From Bolinopsis microptera (Eukaryota > Ctenophora > Tentaculata > Lobata > Bolinopsidae): 64,000 nucleotides of DNA. The first letter of the stretch is position 1, and every line of letters begins with the position of its first letter. This document shows positions 5,900-34,200 of this stretch, in pieces. The notes under the pieces are model-generated. The model saw only the letters and a program-made list of their open reading frames with translations. It had not been told where the DNA came from and did no database searches. A program made the translations under genes and the position numbers. The stretch is taken from the NCBI RefSeq assembly GCF_026151205.1, contig NC_087076.1, positions 558,001-622,000 on the forward strand, given 5' to 3'.

Positions 5900-6485
5900 T
5901 GGCAAAAATTTGTGATTTGCAGGAGAATTTAGCTTTGAACTTGAAGAATGGTGATGAGATTGGAACTGTGAAAAGTGCAGCTCAGAAAGAGATCAAAACC
6001 TTTTCGTCTCTTTTGAAAAACACGTGCAAAAAGAAGAAAAGATTAAGAAAATCCAAGCTGCGGTGAAAAGGGTTGCCCTCGAAGAAGATCGAAGTAAAAG
6101 TCTGATAATCTTTGGGCTTCCGGCGACTGAGGAGAACTTGCATGCTAAGGTATCGGGTATTCTGTTGGACCATCTCAATGAAAAACCGAAAATCTTGAAC
6201 TGTAAACGAGTTGGAAAGGACACAAGTACAAGTGAGCGAGTCAAGCCAGTGAAATTCACTTTGTATAGTTCAGATCAAGCTCGTACCATCTTGAGCAAGA
6301 CTAAACTATTAAGACATGTTGAGGGGTTTAGCTCAGTTTATATCACTCCTGATAGATCAGCTGCATACAGGATGGCCTACAAGAAAGTTGTCGACAAGCT
6401 ACTCAATAAAAGGACAGCAGAGCCGGACAAAGTTCACGTAATCAGGAACTCTAGAGTCGTAATTAGCTCAGAGAAGGAACCTTGA
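5900..6485 (+). pseudogene. L1-ORF1-like (transposase_22/RRM-like) ORF with a frameshift
   Basis: The open frame 6024-6485 (153 codons) encodes DRSKSLIIFGLPATEENLH, KPKILNCKRVGKD, VKPVKFTLYS, SVYITPDRSAAYRMAYKK and an EPDKVHVIRNSRVVIS end. This is the layout of L1 ORF1-type RNA-binding domains found in many invertebrate retroelements. An upstream frame (5900 to about 6020: KICDLQENLALNLKNGDEIG, then EIKTFSSLLKNT) seems to be its coiled-coil start, joined by a one-base shift near 6020. AATAAA follows the stop at about 6510. Probably a decayed retroelement ORF; a domesticated gene with a sequencing error is less likely. Confidence 0.55.
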
Positions 6486-7562: not shown

Positions 7563-8983
7563 TGCTGCTGCTAAGAGAGCAGTAGCAACAGCTAACAAAA
7601 TTTTAAAATAATACTGAAATAAATTTCTGGAAGTTGTAGTTACTTTTCACATACTGATTATTATAATTAGAATATTCTTATATACTATTAGATAAAGTCC
7701 TACCTGCCTAAATAAAGTAAACAAAATAAAAAGCTTGTATTACATCTGGTATCTCTAATGAATAAAAACTTTGGCACAACATAATCATCATCACAGTACA
7801 TAATAACAAATGGAGGTACTAAATACGCATCAGGGAGATTAAGCAACTAGAACTATATGACGTGTCGTAGTGCATATTATTTTGAATACCCTTTAATAAG
7901 AAATGTCACTGGTAATAAATGTAAACTGAATGAGGGGTACTATCTGCCCCACCAAATTGAAAGTACACGTTACGAATAGCAATACGCAAAGTTGCGCCTA
8001 ATGCAGCATTATGACGTCACACCACGTGTCATGACGTCACTTCCTGCTTGGGCTGCTTCCAGTGACAATGAAACAAACCATCCTTTAATTATTACCGCAA
8101 CGACCAACAATTTGAGAAAAGATCTGCAATATTTGGGCCGATAAAGTAAACATAAAGAACATTTCCATTATAACCATGCGACTAAGTACTCAAGAAAAAT
8201 TAGAAAAGTTTGGTAACCACGGTAACCACTTCAGTAAACTAGTGGTACTAGTGTAAACTAGTGGTAACTACTACAGTAAACCAGTGGTAACGACTAATAT
8301 ACAGTAAATAGGTAAATGTACATCAGGAAGACTAAAACGAAACTCATTTCATTATTGTAAAATATTTTCAGTTCCGGTCACGCAATATTCCCTGGTTTTC
8401 ATTTCGACACGTTTCTGAAGAGGGTTTGTGTAGTAGGGTCAACACAGCATATCCAATATAACCCCTCACTTCAAATAGTGTGGTGTATTGGTGTAGTGGT
8501 GTAGTGGTGTAGTCGTACTAATATTATACTACGTAATACTGTGATCCCTGCAAACACCCTGAATGTTCTGTGTTGCAAACACAATGTAGTGTGGTGTAGT
8601 AATCACACTGATGATTGCAGTCCAGTAAGACACTAAAGTAGTAAGCCACTAAAGTAGTAAGACAATAAGAACTGAGATGAAATAGACAAAATCCAATTCT
8701 GCATTATTCAAAATGTTATATGTTACATACACTACTTGTACTTCATTGTAACTAGTAGTGACTTGAGTTTAAGCTCTGAAGTAATATTTGAGCCGACCTA
8801 TCCTCACAGATATTGCCGCTAGAGACACTGACAAGTGGAGGAAATATTCACCTCATGTATACCTCTTTTAAGGATAGGTTATATTATAGTTATAGTAGTA
8901 GTAACTCATGTATAGTGGTGTACTGAAGCTACAATGTCATGTGATGTCCACATGTGGTATGATACTGAAGTCATTTGTTGAGA
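7563..8983. other. Unique AT-rich sequence, minor simple repeats
   Basis: No gene is seen. Contains GGTAACCACGGTAACCAC at 8209, a short GTGTAGTG run at about 8483-8515, and AGTAAGACACTAA-type repeats near 8625. Confidence 0.45.
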
Positions 8984-13685: not shown

Positions 13686-14432
13686 ACTCAGGACTGGTAA
13701 CTAGAAAGGTCCTAAAGACTCGTGAGCAACATAAAATTTGTCCCAAGATGCAAGATAATTTACTTGGTGTTCAGAAACATCTAAAAAGTTGGAGAATGAT
13801 CTACTTAATTGGGCATTTCTCTTAATAAGCCAGGTATATTTGTGTCTTACAAAACGGCAAGATTTCAAAAATTCGGTTTAGGCCAAAAGGTCTTCTGCTG
13901 TTTGCTAACACCAAATAGTTCGCAATTGCCGACTCATGCACATTATATAATATTCAAAAACGTTCAGTTTAAGGTAATTAGTAAATAACTACTGCATGAT
14001 CTGTGAAAACATTTCATGCCAATTGCCAACAAAGAACCGAACCAAATTGTTGGGCAAGGATCTTGATCGATCTTGATCGATCAAAGTTTTCCTTGGCATC
14101 AATTTAACCAAAATGTGATGACCAAAATTCAACTTCAAACTTTTAATTCATTCATACGATGAAACCACGGTAACCACGGTAACCACGGTAACCATGTTAC
14201 CAAGAATACCTGACCTACAATAATTCGGCACATTGCAGATTTTCCCATCGTATGATAATATGTGTCATCCCCTCATTGTAATCAAGTGGTTACTGGCTAG
14301 CATTTTAACGGTTTAACCTTGATTGACCATGACTGTGGCACAATACTGGAGTATTCAAGATGGAGGTCTTCTATATGATTAATTACGATATCAACCAAAT
14401 TTAGGGTGGGTTTTGCCATAGTTTGAATTCAG
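13686..14432. other. 3' flank of the PDE gene
   Basis: Unique AT-rich sequence with three to four GGTAACCAC repeats at 14168-14200 and a TTGATCGATCTTGATCGATC pair at 14062. No gene recognised. Confidence 0.45.
14142..14147 (-). promoter_or_regulatory. Candidate polyadenylation signal (ATTAAA)
   Basis: The common variant hexamer ATTAAA lies on the minus strand about 290 bp beyond the stop at 14433. AT-rich DNA makes chance matches likely. Confidence 0.2.
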
Positions 14433-15923
14433 TCACTTGTCCATTATCGAATCAGCCTTTGAGAGATAGTCAACATCATCCATACCTAATATAAAAAACA
14501 TACCTAATATAAAAACTACTCTATAAAAAACTAATAACTGCCCCGTATAATATGTATTAAATAATAATTTGACAGTGCTCGCTAATTTCACAGTGCTCGC
14601 TAATTTCACAGTGCTCGCTAATTTGACAGTGCTCGCTAATTTCACAGTGCTCGCTAATTTCACAGTGCTCGCTAGTTTCACAGTGCTCGCTAATTTCACA
14701 GTGCTCGCTAATTTCACAGTGCTCGCTAATTTCACAGTGCTCGCTAATTTCACAGTGCTCGCTAATTTCACAGTGCTCGCTAATTTCACAGTGCTCGCTA
14801 GTTTCACAGTGCTCGCTAGTTTGACAGTGCTCGCTAATTTCACAGTGCTCGCTAATTTCACAGTGCTCGCTAATTTCACAGTGCTCGCTAATTTCACAGT
14901 GCTCGCTAGTTTCACAGTGCTCGCTAGTTTCACAGTGCTCGCTAGTTTCACAGTGCTCGCTAATTTCACAGTGCTCGCTAGTTTCACAGTGCTCGCTAAT
15001 TTCACAGTGCTCGCTAATTTCACAGTGCTCGCTAGTTTCACAGTGCTCGCTAATTTCACAGTGCTCGCTAATTTCACAGTGCTCGCTAGTTTCACAGTGC
15101 TCGCTAATTTGACAGTGCTCGCTAATTTCACAGTGCTCGCTAATTTCACAGTGCTCGCTAGTTTCACAGTGCTCGCTAGTTTCACAGTGCTCGCTAATTT
15201 CACAGTGCTCGCTAATTTCACAGTGCTCGCTAATTTCACAGTGCTCGCTAGTTTCACAGTGCTTGCTAGTTTCACAGTGCTCGCTAATTTGACAGTGCTC
15301 GCTAATTTCACAGTGCTCGCTAATTTCACAGTGCTCGCTAATTTCACAGTGCTCGCTAGTTTCACAGTGCTCGCTAGTTTCACAGTGCTCGCTAGTTTCA
15401 CAGTGCTCGCTAGTTTCACAGTGCTCGCTAGTTTCACAGTGCTCGCTAATTTCACAGTGCTCGCTAATTTCACAGTGCTCGCTAGTTTCACAGTGCTCGC
15501 TAGTTTCACAGTGCTCGCTAGTTTCACAGTGCTCGCTAGTTTCACAGTGCTCGCTAGTTTCACAGTGCTCGCTAGTTTCACAGTGCTCGCTAATTTCACA
15601 GTGCTCGCTAGTTTCACAGTGCTCGCTAATTTCACAGTGCTCGCTAGTTTCACAGTGCTCGCTAATTTCACAGTGCTCGCTAATTTCACAGTGCTCGCTA
15701 ATTTCACAGTGCTCGCTAATTTCACAGTGCTCGCTAGTTTCACAGTGCTCGCTAATTTCACAGTGCTCGCTAATTTCACAGTGCTCGCTAATTTCACAGT
15801 GCTCGCTAATTTCACAGTGCTCGCTAATTTCACAGTGCTCGCTAATTTCACAGTGCTCGCTAATTTCACAGTGCTCGCTAATTTCACAGTGCTCGCTAAT
15901 TTCACAGTGCTCGATATGCTCAC
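14433..15923 (-). CDS. Possible read-through extension of exon 21: about 74 copies of STVKLA plus C-terminal tail
   Basis: Continuing the exon 21 frame past the putative donor gives VSIS, then about 74 perfect tandem copies of the hexapeptide STVKLA (15915 to 14569). A hydrophobic stretch ([18 protein letters not shown]) and a hydrophilic end ([16 protein letters not shown]) follow before the stop. Three positions vary among the 18-bp units (TTA/CTA, GTG/GTC, GCG/GCA in this frame) and all are synonymous, while two of the three change amino acids in the open opposite-strand frame. This suggests coding; the alternative is a final intron containing the array. Confidence 0.45.
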   Translation of the reverse strand: MSISSTVKLASTVKLASTVKLASTVKLASTVKLASTVKLASTVKLASTVKLASTVKLASTVKLASTVKLASTVKLASTVKLASTVKLASTVKLASTVKLASTVKLASTVKLASTVKLASTVKLASTVKLASTVKLASTVKLASTVKLASTVKLASTVKLASTVKLASTVKLASTVKLASTVKLASTVKLASTVKLASTVKLASTVKLASTVKLASTVKLASTVKLASTVKLASTVKLASTVKLASTVKLASTVKLASTVKLASTVKLASTVKLASTVKLASTVKLASTVKLASTVKLASTVKLASTVKLASTVKLASTVKLASTVKLASTVKLASTVKLASTVKLASTVKLASTVKLASTVKLASTVKLASTVKLASTVKLASTVKLASTVKLASTVKLASTVKLASTVKLASTVKLASTVKLASTVKLASTVKLASTVKLASTVKLASTVKLLFNTYYTGQLLVFYRVVFILGMFFILGMDDVDYLSKADSIMDK

Positions 15924-18900
15924 TAGTAGGACGTGGCCTGGCTCGGCCAAGTCAGGAGTGGGAGTCTTGCCATCGTCCTCCTGGCTATGCACTATATTGT
16001 CCTCCTGGTCTTCATCTGACATTTCATCAGAAAACCTTGCTTCTCTGGGCTAGGGGGAGGGCGTGACAATGAGGGCGCAGTAAAAAGTAAACGTGGTAAA
16101 GTAAACGTGGCAAAGTGAATGTATATAGTATATAGTACAAGAGATTAGTAATGAGGTGAGGTGATTATTGAAATCACAATGCTTGAGGCATGACACTAGA
16201 GAAACTAGCAATACTAGACTAGTATACTAACCCTGGAGGCATGACACTAAAGAAACTAGCAATACTAGACTAGACTAGACTATAATAGACTAGACTAGAC
16301 TAGTCTAGTCTAGACTAGACTAGACTAGACTAGACTAGACTAGACTAGACTAGACTAGACTAGACTAGACTAGTATACTTACCCGGTTAGTGTTTATAGA
16401 GGTAAGGGTGATGTTGGCGCTGGAGATGTCCGCAAACGAGGTCCGTCTTTCACACAGATTGGACCAGTTGCGTCGGTTACTTAAACAGCCGTCTAGAAGC
16501 GGCCGGAAAAGGGGGTTCGCTTTCTCTAATGACTGAAGAAACGAGCATGTTGGATCAGGTTTTTGAAACATTCTCACTATCAAAATAAACAAGTAAAGAA
16601 AAGCAGAGGCACATATTAGGTGCGGTAAAAAAATCGAAATTATGCGGTACCGCACCCGACTATAAAGGTAAAATGTGCGGTAAGGTGCGGTAAATTTTTA
16701 CCAATTATGCGGCAATTATGCGATTTTTTCGAAATTTGTGCGGGAATTGTGCGGTTTTCTTTTGCATTTTCTGAAGGACTTTGGAAATTCTAAACGTATA
16801 ACCGCCGCTCTTATCAAAAATAGGTCTGTTTATGTGTTACTGAGGGTGTAGTTCTTTACTAAGACCATGATTGAACGTATATTGAGATTCAGTTATCTGA
16901 GAACAGCGACTTGATCTGGTAGAGATCAGGAGACAGTTATTTGAAGACGCCTCTTGATAGAGTCGATCAGATCCCATGCGTGATCGCAAATATGTGACAC
17001 GCTTGTTGGCATTGATCGTCAGTACTTGTAAACCATTTGATCAAAGATCCATTAAGCCCACTATAAAGCCAACGCTACAACGAACAGAGCTCATTACCCG
17101 ATAAAAAGGGCTGCAGTTATGATCGAAGTACGGTAACGACGAGGGTTCCATAACGGCCTGGGTCACGGTCCCGAAAGGGCCTGGGTCACGGTCCCGAAAG
17201 GGCCTGGGTAACGGTCCCGAAAGGGCCTGGGTCATGGTCCCGAAAGGGCCTGGGTCACGTGGTAACCGGGTCACGTGGCCTAGGCAGGAGTTCCAAAAGG
17301 GCCTGGGTCACGGTCCCGAAAGGGCCTGGGTCAGGGTCCCGAAAGGGCCTGGGTCACGTGGTAACTGGGTCACGTGGCCTAGGTATGAGTTCCAAAAGGG
17401 CCTGGGTCACGGTCCCGAAAGGGCCTGAGTCACGGTCCTAAAAGGGCCTGAGTCACGGTCCCGAAAGGGCCCGACTTTTAACATATTTTGGTTTTTACAC
17501 TCGAAAATCTTAACGTGAAAATTTCAAAATTATGCGAAATTACGCGGAAAATGCTAGATTATGCGGAAATATGCAGAAAATTACAAAATGTGCGGAAAAC
17601 AATAAATTATGCGGAAATGTGCGTAAAACGGTAAATTGTGCGATCCCGCACCCATCGCACCTAATATGTGCCTCTGAAGAAAAGTGAAAAATCTTATAGT
17701 TTCTTTATCTACAAACACAGATTAAACGAATCTTGTGCATTGTTATCCACTATACTGTCTCGACTCGTGTAATGGTTTAAAAGAAATGTAATGTTTGGTT
17801 TAATTTGAATATCATGTCATTAGTAAACATGTATATTGCAGAAGTTGACTACGCTTGTATCTTCAATTTTGATAGTGTTTCAAAATCTGTGAATCTTTAC
17901 CTCATAGAGCTCCAAGCAAATATTGTCAATGAATCCGACTTGCATTTTGGGAAGTTCATCTCGTTTACTTCTGTCCATCATGTACGCTGGCGTGTGTCCA
18001 AACTTATCCCGCTAATGGTACAACAATTCAATAAAGAAACCAAGTAAGAAATTACTATTCTAAAGTTTAACCAATATTGAGACTATTACATGGTATAACC
18101 AGTATATGTACCTCAATGTCCCCCTGATTGAAGAACTCGCTGGTTACCTGGTTACCTGGTTACCTGGTTACCTGGTTACCTGGTTACCTGGTTACCTGGT
18201 TACCTGGTTACCTGGTTACCTGGTTACCTGGTTACCTGGTTACCTGGTTACCTGGTTACCTGGTTACCTGGTATAACCAGTATATGTACCTCAATGTCCC
18301 CCTGATTGAAGAACTCGCTGGTTACCTGGTTACCTGGTTACCTGGTTACCTGGTTACCTGGTTACCTGGTTATTTGGTTACCTGGTTACCTGGTTACCTG
18401 GTTACCTGGTTACCTGGTTACCTGGTTATTTGGTTACCTAGTTACCTGGTATAACCAGTATATGTACCTCAATGTCCCCCTGATTGAAGAACTCGCTGGC
18501 GATCTTCTCAGCTACCATTCTCTGAACCTCCCAAGGTTTAGTGATAGCAGAGAGATCACATCCAGTTATCATCATAGAGCGGAGCAGTACTCTGTTGTCT
18601 CCATCGTCCCAATTAGTGTCCGGGTTTTCCACCAGCTGCTTGAACAGGGATTTATGCCTGGTAAAAGAGAAAGTGTTGATATCAATACTGCAACTTCAGC
18701 TTGATATGAAAGGTTATCAGGATTAAGCTCATTAATGAGAACTCACTTGAAGTACAGAGCCAGGTCAGTAGCCAGGATTGTGGTCTTGGTGAGATCTAAG
18801 AACTGGGAATGTTCCTGCTCGTTGAGCCCTTTAAAGATGTTGTTCCCCTCCACTTGGGAGATGGTGAGGAAGTGGTTGAAGTGATGGTACTCCATAAAGG

Positions 18901-21900
18901 AGGTGCTGTACAGGTTAGCTAGTGGACTGTCAGATCTGCGGTAAACAAGTTAGCTAGTGGTTAACAAGTTAGCTAGTGGTTAACATGTTAGCTAGTGGTT
19001 AACATGTTAGCTAGTGGTTAACAAGTTAGCTAGTGGTTAACAAGTTAGCTAGTGGTTAACAAGTTAGCTAGTGGTTAACAAGTTAGCTAGTGGTTAACAA
19101 GTTAGCTAGTGGTTAACAAGTTAGCTAGTGGTTAACAAGTTAGCTAGTGGTTAACAAGTTAGCTAGTGGTTAACAAGTTAGCTAGTGGTTAACAAGTTAG
19201 CTAGTGGTTAACAAGTTAGCTAGTGGTTAACAAGTTAGCTAGTGGTTAACAAGTTAGCTAGTGGTTAACAAGTTAGCTAGTGGTTAACAAGTTAGCTAGT
19301 GGTTAACAAGTTAGCTAGTGGTTAACAAGTTAGCTAGTGGTTAACAAGTTAGCTAGTGGTTAACAAGTTAGCTAGTGGTTAACAAGTTAGCTAGTGGTTA
19401 ACAAGTTAGCTAGTGGTTAACAAGTTAGCTAGTGGTTAACAAGTTAGCTAGTGGTTAACAAGTTAGCTAGTGGTTAACAAGTTAGCTAGTGGTTAACAAG
19501 TCAGCTAGTGGTTAACAAGTTAGCTAGTGGTTAACAAGTTAGCTAGTGGTTAACAAGTCAGCTAGTGGTTAACAAGTCAGCTAGTGGTTAACAAGTTAGC
19601 TAGTGGTTAACAAGTTAGCTAGTGGTTAACAAGTTAGCTAGTGGTTAACAAGTTAGCTAGTGGTTAACAAGTTAGCTAGTGGTTAACAAGTTAGCTAGTG
19701 GTTAACAAGTTAGCTAGTGGTTAACAAGTTAGCTAGTGGTTAACAAGTTAGCTAGTGGTTAACAAGTTAGCTAGTGGTTAACAAGTTAGCTAGTGGTTAA
19801 CAAGTTAGCTAGTGGTTAACAAGTTAGCTAGTGGTTAACAAGTTAGCTAGTGGTTAACAAGTTAGCTAGTGGTTAACAAGTTAGCTAGTGGTTAACAAGT
19901 CAGCTAGTGGTTAACAAGTCAGCTAGTGGTTAACAAGTTAGCTAGTGGTTAACAAGTTAGCTAGTGGTTAACAAGTTAGCTAGTGGTTAACAAGTTAGCT
20001 AGTGGTTAACAAGTTAGCTAGTGGTTAACAAGTTAGCTAGTGGTTAACAAGTTAGCTAGTGGTTAACAAGTTAGCTAGTGGTTAACAAGTTAGCTAGTGG
20101 TTAACAAGTTAGCTAGTGGTTAACAAGTTAGCTAGTGGTTAACAAGTTAGCTAGTGGTTAACAAGTTAGCTAGTGGTTAACAAGTTAGCTAGTGGTTAAC
20201 AAGTTAGCTAGTGGTTAACAAGTTAGCTAGTGGTTAACAAGTTAGCTAGTGGTTAACAAGTTAGCTAGTGGTTAACAAGTCAGCTAGTGGTTAACAAGTT
20301 AGCTAGTGGTTAACAAGTCAGCTAGTGGTTAACAAGTTAGCTAGTGGTTAACAAGTCAGCTAGTGGTTAACAAGTTAGCTAGTGGTTAACAAGTTAGCTA
20401 GTGGTTAACAAGTTAGCTAGTGGTTAACAAGTTAGCTAGTGGTTAACAAGTTAGCTAGTGGTTAACAAGTTAGCTAGTGGACTGTCAGATCTGCGATTAA
20501 CAAACTCTAATTCAAATAATTTCATAAATCTTTTAGCGATGCTATATGAAAGGAAACCTAGCATTCTTGTTGAACTGGTATCGTAACTGGTAACATAACG
20601 ATAATTTAGTTGTACAACATTACATAATAGCAGTGTTACTAAGTACTATGGGGGGGGGGGGGGGGGGGGCGTACTATGCAGTTGAAACAACACATTAGTG
20701 TACATAATACGATTTGGTAGTTGTTGTAGTTTATTGGGGGACATGCAACGACCATTAATGACCATTAATGACCATTAATGACCATTAATGACAATGTCAG
20801 TATTGGCAAAAATAAAAATACTGACATGGTTTTTTCAGCACTTTATGGAACGAAAGTTAGGGCAACCATAGCTATATTTATAGGTCTTTCATGCAGAGAT
20901 TTGATTGAGAAAATTAAAAGGCTAAGCTTCTTTGGTTAGGTAGATCTTTCAGAGCAGAATTACCCTAGAGACTTGAAAAATGAGAGAAAATCGAAATGTC
21001 TTAAAATACAATATTATACATACAATTCATACTGTTAGAAGACTTATCTACTATGGCCTATACTATGGATACTGACTTTTGTCTCCCCCCCCCTGTATAA
21101 TCAAGATACTAGAAAATGCGAGTCTCCATTTGCGGCCAAAAATTGTCCAGAAAAATCGGTGTCACCAATTACATTCGGCTTTATAATACAGATTGGCATA
21201 AACGATGATTATTGGTTGTTAATGATTTTGTCAAAATTTAAAATATTCAGCTGTTAACTGAGGGACTTAAAACTGCAGAAACAATGCGATTTATTGCGCA
21301 TTCCTCTATCAAAATGGAATCACATTTCTAAACCCAACGCTTTTATTTTGTAGAGTTGTCAAAATCAGGAACTACAAAAAAACAATTTCACAAAAGGGCT
21401 AGGCAAGTCACACAAAGGTGTTACAAAAGGGCGATAACTATACTAGCGTTCGAAATATATGATATAGCCGAGACTACAAAGTAGAAGTTTTAAGTTGTAA
21501 CTTCGAATTTTGATCATTTTCTTAAAATTAATTTCCCCCAGTTTGTAAGTTAACTGGTACTCACAATTTCTGGAACTGATTAGTAGTGCCCCGGTGGTCA
21601 ATGTCGTGACAAAGAGAGCCCACCAGAAGAGCAAACACCTCAATATCAGTAAACTGCTGAGACATTTGGCCGGACGTTAACATAGCGAACATCATTTGAG
21701 CCACGTTGAATCCGTGTCGCCAGTTATGGTACATAACGTCTCTGTAATTCTTACGCACTGTTATTGACCATCTGATCAAACTCTGGAAATCAATCCTGGG
21801 GGACAGTTTGTTAGGCGACTCCAAATTCGGATCACATTTATATTAAACAAGTTCACTTCAAGTATATTAAAATATCAAAACAGTGAAAAGAAGAAAACAA

Positions 21901-24900
21901 GAGAACACCTGAATTTGTTGATAAGGTCGAGGTCTATGAACATTCTGATAGTGGCTAGAACCGTCTGGTCTGTTTCCAGGGAATGATCCGCAAACTCAAA
22001 CGACAGTATATTGAGCGATTGGGCGCTGGGTATCTCTTCTCGCTGCAAATGAACACGTTTAATATCAGAAGATAAAATTGTACTTGATTACTAAGAGAAA
22101 TGGTTAATTTGAAATATACATTTATACTACTACTTCTAGAACTAGTAGTAGTAGTACTAACTATCTCCCACAGTGTGGGGCCCACACCATACCTCAATTA
22201 GCGAGACTTCGTCCTTGCTGGCGCTGGCGTGGTACGACAGTATCTGAAACCGTAACATTATAAATACTAATGATGATTTAAGTTATGAACAATGTTATAT
22301 CCCCGCTCAAAGCGTGGGCGACATCTTTCAATGTACATATTATTGGCCTGGCTGCAGCTTACTTATGAGTTACTGCCTAGCTTCTTAGTTCTTACAGCTG
22401 TTATGGCTTACTCATTATTTTGTTACAAGTGATAATGATTCTATTTTCTAGTTGAACAGCAAAGTCAGCCTGCTGTTAATTTTTACACCCTGACTGACTG
22501 GCTCTCTTCGCATTTACAGGTGCTCTCTTCGCCCTTGCTTTTCTCATGCCATATCTTCCGTGCCACTGCTTACATTTCATCAGAGACAAGAGAAATTTGC
22601 TAAATTCATAAAATAATTAATGGTTCAACAACTGAAACTAAACGTGAATTTCGATAGATGATTCCCGAATCGGTCATTAATAATAATTGTTGCAGGGTAA
22701 CACGCTGGCTTCAAGTTCGCTGTACTGAGCAGAAACGCGCGTGTTGCGCTACTATCAATGTACCAAATAAGATCGCGCGTTCCGTAGAAAATATAGATTG
22801 CCGTCTCGAAAGGGAGTAAACGAAAATAATTAGCAAAATTGTTAGTGAACAGCGACATTTATCTGTAATCAAAGGTAATATTATCAAAAAGACAGAAAAT
22901 TCACCTCAAGCACCACTTTCTGAGCATTATTAGCTTTAATAAGTCGCTCGAAGTTGATAACATTATAGATTCCCAAGCCACAGAAAAGCGTAAATGCCTG
23001 TAAATGTAAGTAAATTAGTTAGAGAGCAAATTTAAATCTATTTCGAAGGAAAATAAAATCAGATTTGTAAATTCTGATTTCTACTAAATGACAGAGTTGC
23101 ATTTGCAGGGACTCATTTTAAAGTTACCTCAAATAGGGACTCATTTTAAAGTTACCTCAAATAGGGACTCATTTTAAAGTTACCTCAAATAGGGACTCAT
23201 TTTAAAGTTACCTCAAATAGGGACTCATTTTAAAGTTACCTCAAATAGGGACTCATTTAAAAGTTACCTCAAATAGGGACTCATTTTAAAGTTACCTCAA
23301 ATAGGGACTCATTTTAAAGTTACCTCAAATAGGGACCCATTTTAAAGTTACCTCAAATAGGGACTCATTTTAAAGTTACCTCAAATAGGGACTCATTTTA
23401 AAGTTACCGCAAATAGGGACTCATTTTAAAGCTACCTCAAATAGGGACTCATTTTAAAGTTACCTCAAATAGGGACTCATTTTAAAGCTACCTCAAATAG
23501 GGACTCATTTTAAAGTTACCTCAAATAGGGACTCATTTTAAAGCTACCTCAAATAGGGACTAATTTTAAAGTTACCTCAAATAGGGACTCATTTTAAAGT
23601 TACCTCAAATAGGGACTCATTTTAAAGTTACCTCAAATAGGGACTCATTTTAAAGTTACCTCAAATAGGGACTCATTTTAAAGTTACCTCAAATAAGGAC
23701 TCATTTTAAAGTTACCTCAAATAGGGACTCATCGTTCCTGTCGAAGCGCTCCTCTCCTTTCTTGTTCAAGATCTCTACAACACCTGAATAAAAAGAGGCT
23801 GATTCGCTTGCACATTCCAATATGAGACATTTTGCAGCTTCAGAATAATGAACAATGGGTAGTAGCTTACCAGAGTGTAAGTATACAATGGGTGGTAGCT
23901 TACCAGAGTGTAAGTAGTAGCTTACCAGAGTGTAAAGCTGCGTATCACACAGGAGTGTGCACAGGTTAATTAAAATAAACACCTTTAAAGAATCTTCTTA
24001 TTGAAGATAATTAAATTTATGCACCTAGTTGGATTATATGGCGCTATCTAAAACCATTAGAAATTTAATCAAACTATTAAGAGGGAGCTTCTATGGTCCG
24101 CTCAGATGAGAGAGTTGAAACGCCGCAGCAACACGGACACGTGCCCATAAAACGCCGCAGTAACACGGACACGTGCCCATAAAACGCCGCAGTAACACGG
24201 ACACGTGCCCATAAAACGCCGCAGTAACACAGACACGTGCCCATAAAACGCCGCAGTAACACGGACACGTGCCCATAAAACGCTACAGTAACACGGACGT
24301 CGGACACGTGCCCATAAAACGCTGCAGTAACACGGACACGTGCCCGTAAAACGCACCCTAATTGTATTGCTAGAAGGAAAGTGTTTTGTGTGAAGAGAAG
24401 TTAGTAAAGTGGACCACGTGATGTCTTACCAAGCACGTTTCTGGACTCGTTGAGTATAGGCATGGCGAGGATACTGCGTATTTCCCTGTCTGCTCCGATT
24501 GTCTCCGCACACACCATACCCTCAAACCCGTCTATCTGCTCGCCTGGAACTGCATTAACCGTCTTGAGATTGGAAGCTACATATCTAGCTAGCGTGTCTT
24601 GCGGAGTAAGAATGTTCTGGAACTCGTACTCATCTCCGGTCTCCTTGTTCTTAATGTCATCCCCTGTGTAGATCTCAAAACAGCTCACAAACGCATCTGC
24701 AGTCTTCACTACCTGGCCCTGCGTGGTTTATACACTTAGCACTCAGTTCATAATAACATCACTCAGTTCATAATCACATCACTCAGTTCATAATCACATC
24801 ACTCAGTTCATAATCACATTACTCAGTTCATAATCACATCACTCAGTTCATAATAACATCACTCAGTTTATAACCACATCACTCAGTTCATAATAACATC

Positions 24901-30900: not shown

Positions 30901-31223
30901 TGACAAGTGGGCACTAGTTTGGCAATGTGCCAAGCTGACAAGTGGGCACTAGTTTGGCAACGTGCCAGGCTGACAAGTGGGCACTAGTTTGGCAATGTTC
31001 CAGGCTGACAAGTGGGCACTAGTTTGGCAATGTGCCAGGCTGACAAGTGGGCACTAGTTTGGCAATGTGCCAAGCTCACAAGTGGGTACTAGTTTGGCAA
31101 CGTGCCAGGCTAATGATCCTACTCTCTTATCATCGTTAAATTTAGAGGCGCATGTAAGTAGTGGTAAGTAGTATGTAGCATGATGACTCTGATTGCTAGT
31201 TGGGGATGTGGTGTACTTGCTAA

Positions 31224-31254
<31 letters not shown>

Positions 31255-34200
31255 TAGTTTCTAGCGAGGGTGGGAGTGAACTTGCTAAAGGGGGGAGTGG
31301 GGCATAGTTTCTAGTGAGAGTGGGGGTGTACTTGCTAAGGGGGGGGGGGGGGGGGGGGGGCATAGTTTCTAGCGAGGGTGGGAGTGAACTTGCTAAAGGG
31401 GGGAGTGGGGCATAGTTTCTAATGAGAGTGGGGGTGTACTTGCTAAGGGGGGGGGGGGGGGGGGGGGGGATAGTTTCTAGCGATGGTTGGAGTGAACTTG
31501 CTAAAGGGGGGAGTGGGGCATAGTTTCTAGTGAGAGTGGGGGTGTACTTGCTAAGGGGGGGGGGGGGATAGTTTCTAGCGAGGGTGGGAGTGAACTTGCT
31601 AAAGGGGGGAGTGGGGCATAGTTTCTAATGAGAGTGGGGGTGTACTTGCTAAGGGGGGGGGGGGGGATAGTTTCTAGTGAGAGTGGGGGTGTACTTGCTA
31701 AGGGGGGGGGGGGGGGGGGGGGATAGTTTCTAGTGAGAGTGGGGGTGTACTTGCTAAGGGGGGGGGGGGGGGGGGGCATAGTTTCTAATGAGAGTGGGGG
31801 TGTACTTGCTAAGGGGGGGGGGGGGGGGGATAGTTTCTAGCGATGGTTGGAGTGAACTTGCTAAAGGGGGGAGTGGGGCATAGTTTCTAGTGAGAGTGGG
31901 GGTGTACTTGCTAAGGGGGGGGGGGGGGGGATAGTTTCTAGCGATGGTTGGAGTGAACTTGCTAAAGGGGGGAGTGGGGCATAGTTTCTAGTGAGAGTGG
32001 GGGTGTACTTGCTAAGGGGGGGGGGATAGTTTCTAGCGAGGGTGGGAGTGAACTTGCTAAAGGGGGGAGTGGGGCATAGTTTCTAATGAGAGTGGGGGTT
32101 GTACTTGCTAAGGGGGGGGGGGGGGGATAGTTTCTAGCGATGGTTGGAGTGAACTTGCTAAAGGGGGGAGTGGGGCATAGTTTCTAGTGAGAGTGGGGGT
32201 GTACTTGCTAAGGGGGGGGGGGGGGATAGTTTCTAGCGAGGGTGGGAGTGAACTTGCTAAAGGGGGGAGTGGGGCATAGTTTCTAATGAGAGTGGGGGTT
32301 GTACTTGCTAAGGGGGGGGGGGGGGGGATAGTTTCTAGCGATGGTTGGAGTGAACTTGCTAAAGGGGGGAGTGGGGCATAGTTTCTAGTGAGAGTGGGGG
32401 TGTACTTGCTAAGGGGGGGGGGGGGGGATAGTTTCTAGCGAGGGTGGGAGTGAACTTGCTAAAGGGGGGAGTGGGGCATAGTTTCTAGTGAGAGTGGGAG
32501 TGAACTTGCTAAGGGGGGGGGGGGGGGGGGGGCATAGTTTCTAGTGAGAGTGGGGGTGTACTTGCTAAGGGGGGGGGGGGGGGTGAGGTTGTAGTTACTA
32601 GTGGGGTGTAGTTGTTAGGAAGGGGGGGGGGGGGGGAGGGACGTAGTCGCTAGAGGTTGACGTAGTTGCTAGTGGGGCGGGGTGGGAGTGTAGTTTCTAG
32701 TGAGGGAGGGGTGGTGTAGTTGCTATTTCTCTATTTGTCGTAAATATTTTGTGACAATTTGCCTCAGGACCCAACTAATCTTTATAAAGTACATGGCAGC
32801 AGTTTTATATAGCAAATGGTATAATAGATTTCATCTTTAAAACCAACATTTTAAATCACATAATAGGACTAATTAAGGAAGAGGTATGAAGGAGGGTTTA
32901 AATAGCGCTGTAAGTACTAGTATTGCGGAGGTATCTGCTCCTTTGTCTTATAATGACATGTGGTGTAATGTTATGCACGTGGTGTACCAGTGGGGTGTAG
33001 TACTTGGGTGATGGTGTAGTAGCAACACCAGTGGGGTGTAGTACTTGGGTGATGGTGTAGTAGCAACACCAGTGGGGTGTAGTACTTGGGTGATGGTGTA
33101 GTAGCAACACCACCAAGTGTAGCAGTGGGGTGTAGTACTTGGGTGATTGTGTAGTAGCAACACCAGTGGGGTGTAGTACTTGGGTGATGGTGTAGTAGCA
33201 ACACCACCAAGTGTAGCAGTGGGGTGTAGTACTTGGGTGATTGTGTAGTAGCAACACCAGTGGGGTGTAGTACTTGGGTGATGGTGTAGTAGCAACACCA
33301 CCAAATGTAGCAGTGGGGTGTAGTACTTGGGTGATGGTGTAGTAGCAACACCAGTGGGGTGTAGTACTTGGGTGATGGTGTAGTAGCAACACCACCAAGT
33401 GTAGCAGTGGGGTGTAGTACTTGGGTGATGGTGTAGTAGCAACACCACCAAGTGTAGCAGTGGGGTGTAGTACTTGGGTGATGGTGTAGTAGCAACACCA
33501 GTGGGGTGTAGTACTTGGGTGATGGTGTAGTAGCAACACCACCAAGTGTAGCACTGGGGTGTAGTACTTGGGTGATGGTGTAGTAGCAACACCACCAAGT
33601 GTAGCAGTGGGGTGTAGTACTTGGGTGATGGTGTAGTAGCAACACCACCAAGTGTAGCAGTGGGGTGTAGTACCTGATAAGCGTCCGGAATGTTGACGAT
33701 CTCCCCGCTCTCAGCCACGTACCCCACAATGCCCTTACCGTACGGTATCCTGATCGGCTTGTGCTCGTACATGTCTGTAAGCTGACTGTTCTCTGTCACG
33801 TCAAACAGCTTACTCACCAGAAACCTGTCGCATTTCACCAGGGTAACATGAAGAATGGAGTATAGTATATAGGAGGGCCGGAGGGGGAGGTTTGATTGTT
33901 CGCATACTACATTAAGAAAGTTTAAAAGATATGAGACACTGCGGTGTAGTTACTGATTACTGCAGTACTGCATTATTCCTGCATTATCTGTAGATTTACA
34001 ATTGGTCACTGTGTCCTCCATTGAATGCCAATGTACATGAAACTCACATAGAGAGGTACTAATGCTACAGCCCTCCCCCCCTAGTATCAGGGAGAGGTAC
34101 TAATGCTACAGCCCCCCCACTAATGATACACCCCCCACTAATGCTACACCCCCCACTAATGCTACACCCCCCACTAATGCTACACCCCCCCCCCCTAGTA

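What the first reader, a model, noticed from the sequence alone, without database searches (positions are those of the whole stretch)
14433..16049. PDE C-terminus may include about 74 copies of a hexapeptide, with only synonymous variation
Seen: the frame of the last PDE exon (phase-matched to exon 20) stays open through an 18-bp array to a stop at 14433. Three positions vary among roughly 74 units and all three are third-codon, silent changes in this frame, so every unit reads STVKLA. In the open opposite-strand frame two of the three change residues. Other open arrays here (44.7, 46.7, 55.3 kb) carry amino-acid-changing variants. Inference: the repeat may be translated as a Ser/Thr/Lys tail of about 450 residues, unlike any PDE known to me. 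Caution: only three independent sites, which duplication could have spread, and a plausible donor (CTA|gtgagc) precedes the array.
Basis: partly seen in the sequence, partly recalled or inferred. Interest (0 to 1): 0.85.

Follow-up and report, generated by a model that had tools for sequence, protein, structure and literature searches.

The report
In-frame repeat at phosphodiesterase gene end
The last coding-looking exon of an animal-type cyclic-nucleotide phosphodiesterase gene runs in frame through 75 copies of an 18-base repeat; the sequence alone cannot tell whether cells translate the repeat or splice it out, because another exon of the same gene runs open through a repeat that must be removed for the protein to be whole.

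Summary
On the minus strand 75 units of 18 bp (15911-14562) read STVKLA 74 times and STVKLL once, in frame with an upstream phosphodiesterase tail exon and open to a stop at 14433. Correction: the commonest variant (TTA/CTA, 27 of 75) is at a first codon position, though silent.

As proof of translation it is weak. Three silent of three has a chance of about 0.02. Other arrays here share the open frames, lack of indels and homogeneity. The GAF exon of this gene reads 241 codons into its adjacent array, which must be spliced out.

New: codon statistics show a coding-like tail exon, a non-coding-like array and T-rich stretch, then 16 coding-like codons in the same frame before the stop (4 of 1551 non-coding stops as good). 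A weak donor (15923) and an acceptor (14456) would remove 1467 nt, 489 codons, without shifting frame: the layout of an exitron.

Best reading: an exitron-like, array-filled insert between two coding pieces of a PDE5/6-type tail, probably often spliced out and translated if retained. Constitutive translation remains possible (0.3). RNA is decisive.

The parts
16383..16532 (-). exon C6: end of PDE catalytic domain ([15 protein letters not shown]...LTSINTNR), donor CGG|GTAAGT
   Evidence: alignments to PDE5 and PDE5/6 chains end at CER or CERRT in this exon; borders
15924..16049 (-). tail exon [43 protein letters not shown] (42 codons); acceptor TAG|CCC at 16049 (alternative CAG|AGA at 16044 gives RSKVF then stop)
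   Evidence: codon log-odds +0.306 per codon over 16046-15924; 0 of 360 open (overlapping) non-coding 41-codon windows as high
15918..15926 (-). candidate 5' splice site CTA|GTGAGC (first intron base 15923)
   Evidence: score 4.49 against leave-one-out 3.39-11.05 for 15 own donors; 12% of all GTs in the window score as high
14562..15911 (-). 18-bp array, 75 units, STVKLA x74 then STVKLL
   Evidence: exact two-unit pattern found only here in the genome
14484..14567 (-). T-rich stretch at and after the array end, read [28 protein letters not shown] (its first two codons belong to the edge unit); strongly non-coding codon composition
   Evidence: -0.85 log-odds per codon
14484..14498 (-). acceptor-like TTTTTTATATTAG|GT (first exon base 14485), the best of four acceptors scored between array and stop; wrong phase from exon T for the coding-like frame
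   Evidence: score 4.88, 10.5% of AGs as high
14456..14472 (-). candidate 3' splice site TGACTATCTCTCAAAG|G in phase with exon T; with donor 15923 it removes 1467 nt (489 codons)
   Evidence: score 2.74, own acceptors 1.07-5.35 leave-one-out, 28% of AGs as high; length
14433..14483 (-). coding-like last block [16 protein letters not shown] and stop TGA, same frame as exon T
   Evidence: +0.50 per codon; 1 of 829 open non-coding windows of 16 codons before a stop; floating-length test 4 of 1551
32951..33832 (-). internal control: GAF exon A (core 33832-33674) whose frame reads on 241 codons through the adjacent array although the GAF domain continues in exon A2 (29747-29658)

Best explanation
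The gene is a GAF-GAF-PDEase phosphodiesterase of the PDE5/6-like group. Its C-terminal tail beyond the catalytic domain has two coding-looking pieces: an acidic piece (exon T, 42 codons) and a last piece ending in ...ADSIMDK. Between them lies an insert with a weak 5' splice site, an 18-bp tandem array, a T-rich stretch and an acceptor in the same phase. The insert is a multiple of three and has no stop, so it is laid out like an exitron. Removal would join ...AEPGHVLL to ADSIMDK. Retention would insert 489 codons, including 75 hexapeptides, and still reach the same stop. I think the array grew next to the donor, as arrays at other donors of this gene appear to have done, and that it is spliced out of many or most transcripts. 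Shown: sequence, frame, codon statistics, splice-site scores. Inferred: splicing, relative amounts, origin, any function of a retained form.
For: Exon T is coding-like (+0.306 per codon; 0 of 360 open non-coding windows) and the array unit in this frame is not (-0.31; the other two sense frames -0.09 and +0.29). The T-rich stretch is -0.85 per codon and the last 16 codons +0.50; 4 of 1551 non-coding stops have so good a preceding stretch. Coding-like composition ends with the codon at 15933, 9 nt before the donor. Donor and acceptor scores lie within the range of the gene's own sites. Array edges lie within 35 bp of 5 of the 15 other donors located, against 10.7% of random positions (A2 donor relocated, count unchanged); for acceptors it is 2 of 14, about the random rate. 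Donor 15923 to acceptor 14456 is 1467 nt, a multiple of 3. Exitrons are described as 3n-rich, stop-free, with weaker splice sites and an excess of synonymous changes (PMC4484396, passages).
Against: No RNA evidence. Stop-free 3n introns are said to be counter-selected (passage in PMC4484396), so such an intron is a coincidence if it is never retained; and an intron needs no silent-only variation. The acceptor at 14456 is mediocre; the better one at 14485, exactly at the composition switch, is out of phase with exon T, and a still better one lies beyond the stop at 14345 (score 5.89, 3.6% of AGs as high), from which exon T would end YCATVMVNQG (frame). The codon scores of exon T and of the last block rest largely on Asp and Glu codons, few in number. 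The insert lacks the exon-like composition that published exitrons have. Exon T has no second match in the genome at E 0.001, so the tail cannot be checked by homology.
Confidence: 0.42

Rival explanations
1. One reading: the donor at 15923 is not used, the terminal exon runs from 16049 to 14433, and the protein always carries about 450 residues of STVKLA repeats, kept by purifying selection.
For: If exon T is in the mRNA through 16049 and 15923 is not used, read-through is unavoidable. All three variant sites are silent (chance about 0.02). The frame stays open through the T-rich stretch (chance 0.034 for 42 open codons of such sequence) and reaches a coding-like end in frame. The donor is in the lower part of the gene's own range: 3 of 15 own donors score lower.
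Against: Array and T-rich stretch have non-coding codon composition. In-phase open read-through also occurs at GAF exon A, where it cannot be used. Equal homogeneity occurs in the 19-bp array at 18940-20480, whose unit contains stops and is not 3n (1.9 variant types per kb against 2.3 here). No Pfam match up to E 10.
Confidence: 0.3
2. The array is plainly non-coding: exon T is spliced at 15923 to another exon (for example at 14345 or one not recognised here), or transcripts end through the alternative acceptor 16044 (RSKVF, stop) or unspliced after exon C6 (VSILV, stop), leaving the array in an intron or 3' UTR. The in-frame end at 14433 and the silent variants are chance.
For: Tandem arrays fill 57.5% of the window, and arrays at the donors of exon 1, GAF exon A, B3, C4 and C6 are intronic in the gene model. 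Open frames through 18-bp arrays are common in the arrays examined. Acceptor 16044 scores above 16049 when 16049 is left out of the model (1.72 against 1.07); acceptor 14345 scores 5.89.
Against: Exon T is coding-like, which argues against 16044 and against ending after C6. The coding-like last block in the same frame has a chance of 4 in 1551. Among 337 acceptor-led phase-0 frames downstream outside arrays, the one at 14456 ranks fifth by total score and has the highest per-codon score of the 25 printed; the four above it overlap one another about 12 kb away; 14345 is not among the 25.
Confidence: 0.25

Closest known systems
Exitrons (Marquez et al. 2015, PMC4484396; passages seen)
   Same: Stop-free stretch, length a multiple of three, flanked by coding-like sequence in the same frame, modest splice sites, variants silent.
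   Different: The insert is mostly a tandem array with non-coding codon composition, and there is no transcript evidence; published exitrons are defined by observed alternative splicing.
Coding minisatellites such as the Prdm9 zinc-finger array (PMC3890296, search listing only)
   Same: Tandem array of a 3n unit in frame with a gene.
   Different: No known domain, no homologue found, translation unproven; variants here are silent whereas that abstract speaks of positive selection on residues.
PDE5/PDE6-type cyclic nucleotide phosphodiesterases
   Same: Two GAF domains and PDEase_I; best solved-structure matches are PDE5/6 chains.
   Different: The tail after the catalytic domain (exon T onwards) matched nothing in the searches made.
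Intron gain by tandem duplication across an exon-intron border (PMC4974935, abstract seen)
   Same: Duplications in this gene include exon edges with their splice sites (exons B3, C4, C3).
   Different: Here the duplications are mostly long arrays next to existing splice sites; no new intron was shown.

Membership tests
[quoted passage not shown]
   no RNA data held
Exitron | no in-frame stop in the retained form | tested here: met
   538-codon open frame
Exitron | length a multiple of three (frequent, not required) | tested here: met
   15923-14457 is 1467 nt
Exitron | usable, typically weaker, splice sites | tested here: inconclusive
   donor 4.49 and acceptor 2.74, both inside the gene's leave-one-out ranges, but 12% of GTs and 28% of AGs score as high
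Exitron | exon-like coding composition of the insert | tested here: not met
   array unit -0.31 and T-rich part -0.85 log-odds per codon; so it is not filed as an exitron, only as laid out like one
Coding minisatellite (translated tandem repeat) | array in frame inside a coding exon | tested here: inconclusive
   in frame with exon T but a candidate donor precedes it and the same pattern at exon A is intronic
Coding minisatellite (translated tandem repeat) | variation under coding constraint | tested here: inconclusive
   3 of 3 silent, chance about 0.02
PDE5/6-type phosphodiesterase | tandem GAF domains plus PDEase_I catalytic domain | tested here: met
   Pfam GAF E 1.2e-24 (2 stretches), PDEase_I E 2.7e-78 on joined exon cores; best PDB chain 3jab_C, E 1.4e-99; PDE11 not separately tested
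Hexapeptide (left-handed beta-helix) repeat protein | match to Pfam Hexapep | tested here: not met
   STVKLA frame: no Pfam family up to E 10; the antisense frame matches Hexapep at 3.5e-18, which suggests that such matches can arise from array composition

The most novel reading that the evidence does not exclude
A phosphodiesterase whose C-terminus is switched between a short tail and one with 489 extra residues, most of them 75 hexapeptide units held silent by selection, by splicing or retaining a stop-free, frame-neutral intron filled by a tandem array.
Probability: 0.2. Interest if true: 0.65.

Novelty: new member of a known kind. Interest (0 to 1): 0.36.

Why it matters
If the array is translated or optionally retained, it would be a case of a tandem array being taken into a signalling enzyme without breaking it, and would show how array growth at a splice donor can create an exitron. 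If it is spliced out, it is a clean warning that an in-phase open array, even with silent-only variants, is not evidence of translation; the GAF exon of the same gene already shows this for openness.

Tried and rejected
Considered and rejected. (1) The array as a dispersed family: the exact two-unit pattern has 73 genome matches, all here; a protein search with ten units finds other loci only at 28-64% identity, and the seven of these that I fetched are other 18-bp arrays. (2) A conserved tail in paralogues: exon T with three units has one genome match at E 0.001, itself; tblastn of the tail against 28 fetched PDE loci gave nothing below E 1.5, though most of these loci reach only about 1.5 kb beyond each match. 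(3) Structured RNA: four sense units fold worse than their shuffles (z +1.78), antisense z +0.94; no Rfam family in the window at gathering scores. (4) A hexapeptide beta-helix: no Pfam match in the STVKLA frame. AlphaFold modelling was not available and I did not return to it: PMC11795689 (title and start of abstract in a search listing) reports confident but unrealistic beta-solenoids for perfect repeats. An NCBIfam hit of a shortened tail (SoxY, E 0.015, 15.7 bits against a cut-off of 125) was taken as chance. (5) Homogeneity and lack of indels as signs of selection: the 19-bp array at 18940-20480 is as homogeneous, and seven other arrays of 25 or more copies listed (at 8980, 10198, 18940, 24740, 36879, 39710, 44722) also show 0% indels, while others show 3-22%. 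(6) A subtelomeric explanation for array density: array cover in ten 5-kb samples, eight on C5 and two on C1, ranges from 0 to 0.99 without a trend towards the end of C5. (7) Species identification: a size search gave an assembly with 876 contigs that does not fit (one passage seen), no COX1 was found; left open, so no comparison with related species was made. (8) A search for papers holding 5 of the 6 terms phosphodiesterase, PDE5, PDE11, tandem repeat, C-terminal, hexapeptide repeat found 0. (9) The first codon-statistics script read reverse-strand loci on the wrong strand; replaced. One search placed the A2 donor wrongly at 31187; one search gives 29658, 69 bp from the nearest array, and the count within 35 bp stays 5 of 15. 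In one search the C4 row measured a duplicated copy, not the real exon end.
Full report
WHAT WAS CHECKED. The window is G000:C5:558001-622000 of a 264.65-Mb genome in 232 contigs; I did not identify the species. The 538-codon minus-strand frame at 16049-14433 exists. The array is 75 units of 18 bp from 15911 to 14562: 44 AGCACTGTGAAATTAGCG, 25 with C at position 13, 3 with C at position 9, 1 with both, 1 with C13 and A18, and the edge unit (C at position 9, ending TTATTA). All internal variants are silent in the STVKLA frame, but the commonest (TTA/CTA) is a first-position change, not a third-position one as reported. The exact two-unit pattern occurs nowhere else in the genome.

THE GENE. Exon cores on the minus strand from 60403 down to 16383 carry two GAF stretches and PDEase_I (on joined cores), closest among solved structures to PDE5/6 chains. 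The alignment to those chains ends at CER or CERRT inside exon C6 (16532-16383). The next coding-like piece, exon T, starts at acceptor 16049 in phase 0. Eleven other loci in the genome match PDEase_I. Exon T has no second match in the genome at E 0.001, and the tail none in 28 fetched PDE loci, most of which reach only about 1.5 kb beyond each match. My gene model is not complete: 15 donors and 14 acceptors were located besides the candidate sites at 15923 and below.

HOW STRONG IS THE SILENT PATTERN. For the named frame the chance of 3 of 3 silent is 0.025 with the observed mix of two transitions and one transversion, 0.014 if all changes are equal. In 44 open consensus frames of 10 other 3n arrays (7 fetched because they resemble the repeat, 3 from the window) 122 of 423 variant types are silent, three random types are all silent with mean chance 0.020, and no frame is wholly silent. 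Three frames are open through this array, a fourth in its consensus only, and the window has 50 merged arrays, so after selection this is suggestive only. The low number of variant types (3 in 74 units, 2.3 per kb) is matched by the 19-bp array at 18940-20480 (1.9 per kb), whose unit contains stops and is not 3n.

CONTROLS AGAINST TRANSLATION. Of 16 exon cores examined, the frame runs on 241 codons past GAF exon A, through its adjacent array, although the GAF domain continues in the next exon (one Pfam GAF stretch spans the join), so that array must be spliced out; exon T runs on 496; the other 14 run 0 to 31 codons past the core (the C4 row measured a duplicated copy). Arrays of 18 bp elsewhere in the genome are open in several frames at once, up to 2515 codons. 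Tandem arrays cover 57.5% of the window. Array edges lie within 35 bp of 5 of 15 other donors, against 10.7% of random positions, and of 2 of 14 acceptors, about the random rate (A2 donor corrected). An array 11 bp after a potential donor therefore fits the local pattern, though 5 of 15 is a small number.

CODON STATISTICS (new). Log-odds were trained on 17 exon cores of this gene (766 codons) and on 21 of the 41 PDEase_I matches, those in other genes with a fetched locus and no stop inside (1392 codons), against non-array, non-exon window sequence. Exon T (41 codons) scores +0.306 per codon; own exon cores score 0.05 to 0.49 leave-one-out; 0 of 360 open non-coding windows reach it (the windows overlap). 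The array unit scores -0.31 in the STVKLA frame, -0.09 and +0.29 in the other sense frames. The 28 T-rich codons at the array's end score -0.85 each, then the last 16 codons, [16 protein letters not shown], +0.50 each. The switch falls at 14483, right after the acceptor-like TTTTTTATATTAG|GT. Of 829 open non-coding 16-codon windows before a stop, 1 scores as high; letting the block length float, 4 of 1551. Cautions: the block was noticed in the profile before it was tested, which the floating test only partly corrects; and Asp and Glu codons carry much of the score of both exon T and the block (weights).

SPLICE SITES. With a model from this gene's own sites, donor 15923 (CTA|GTGAGC) scores 4.49; three of 15 own donors score lower leave-one-out; 12% of all GTs score as high. 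Acceptor 14456 scores 2.74 (own 1.07 to 5.35; 28% of AGs as high). Acceptor 14485 scores 4.88 but from exon T gives [13 protein letters not shown], codon score -2.75. Acceptor 14345, beyond the stop, scores 5.89 (3.6% of AGs as high) and would give a short end, YCATVMVNQG (frame). The alternative first acceptor 16044 scores 1.72 against 1.07 for 16049 when 16049 is left out of the model. Donor 15923 with acceptor 14456 removes 1467 nt, 489 codons, joining GHVLL to ADSIMDK.

INTERPRETATION. If exon T is included through 16049, translation must enter the array unless 15923 is used. Two coding-like pieces in the same frame, separated by a stop-free 3n stretch with modest splice sites, is the layout of an exitron as described in PMC4484396 (passages), except that the insert is not exon-like in composition. 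I put 0.42 on an exitron-like insert that is often spliced out, 0.30 on constitutive translation and 0.25 on a wholly non-coding array with chance frame; the remaining 0.03 is for assembly error or something not thought of. These odds are judgement, not computed.

RELATION TO KNOWN THINGS. It works most like an exitron or a coding minisatellite; membership in either cannot be claimed without RNA. The phosphodiesterase assignment is secure at the level of GAF-GAF-PDEase of the PDE5/6-like group; PDE11 was not separately tested.

Noticed in passing
23107-23732: The 28-bp array consists of the 3' end of GAF exon B3 with its 5' splice site (TTTGAG|GTAACT); 15 exact copies of a 27-nt exon-end-plus-donor string, so one intron starts with many candidate donors.
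   Followed up: partly
18086-18499: The 3' end of catalytic exon C4 with its donor is present three times (copies starting at 18497, 18319, 18141), separated by 8-bp arrays.
   Followed up: partly
18934-20489: The start of catalytic exon C3 (TCTGACAGTCCACTAGCTAA) is found at both ends of the 19-bp array (20489 and 18934), and the array unit resembles it.
   Followed up: partly
L052 5635-6223: In another PDE gene (contig C10) a 98-bp unit holding the end of a catalytic exon (LIWESISIKHNLEENHNCVK) and an apparent donor is repeated six times. Arrays built from exon edges may be general in this genome.
   Followed up: no
32951-33832: GAF exon A reads open for 241 codons into its adjacent array, which begins right after the exon's last base.
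   Followed up: yes
14554-16053 (+): The antisense open frame of the same array (NFTVLA) matches Pfam Hexapep at E 3.5e-18, probably a composition artefact that could mislead annotation.
   Followed up: partly
L070 1636-8986: An 18-bp array of about 408 copies with open frames of 2515 and 1433 codons.
   Followed up: no
5958-6485 (+): A 175-codon open frame that looks to me like a retroelement ORF1 (recalled impression); no Pfam match at E 0.01.
   Followed up: partly
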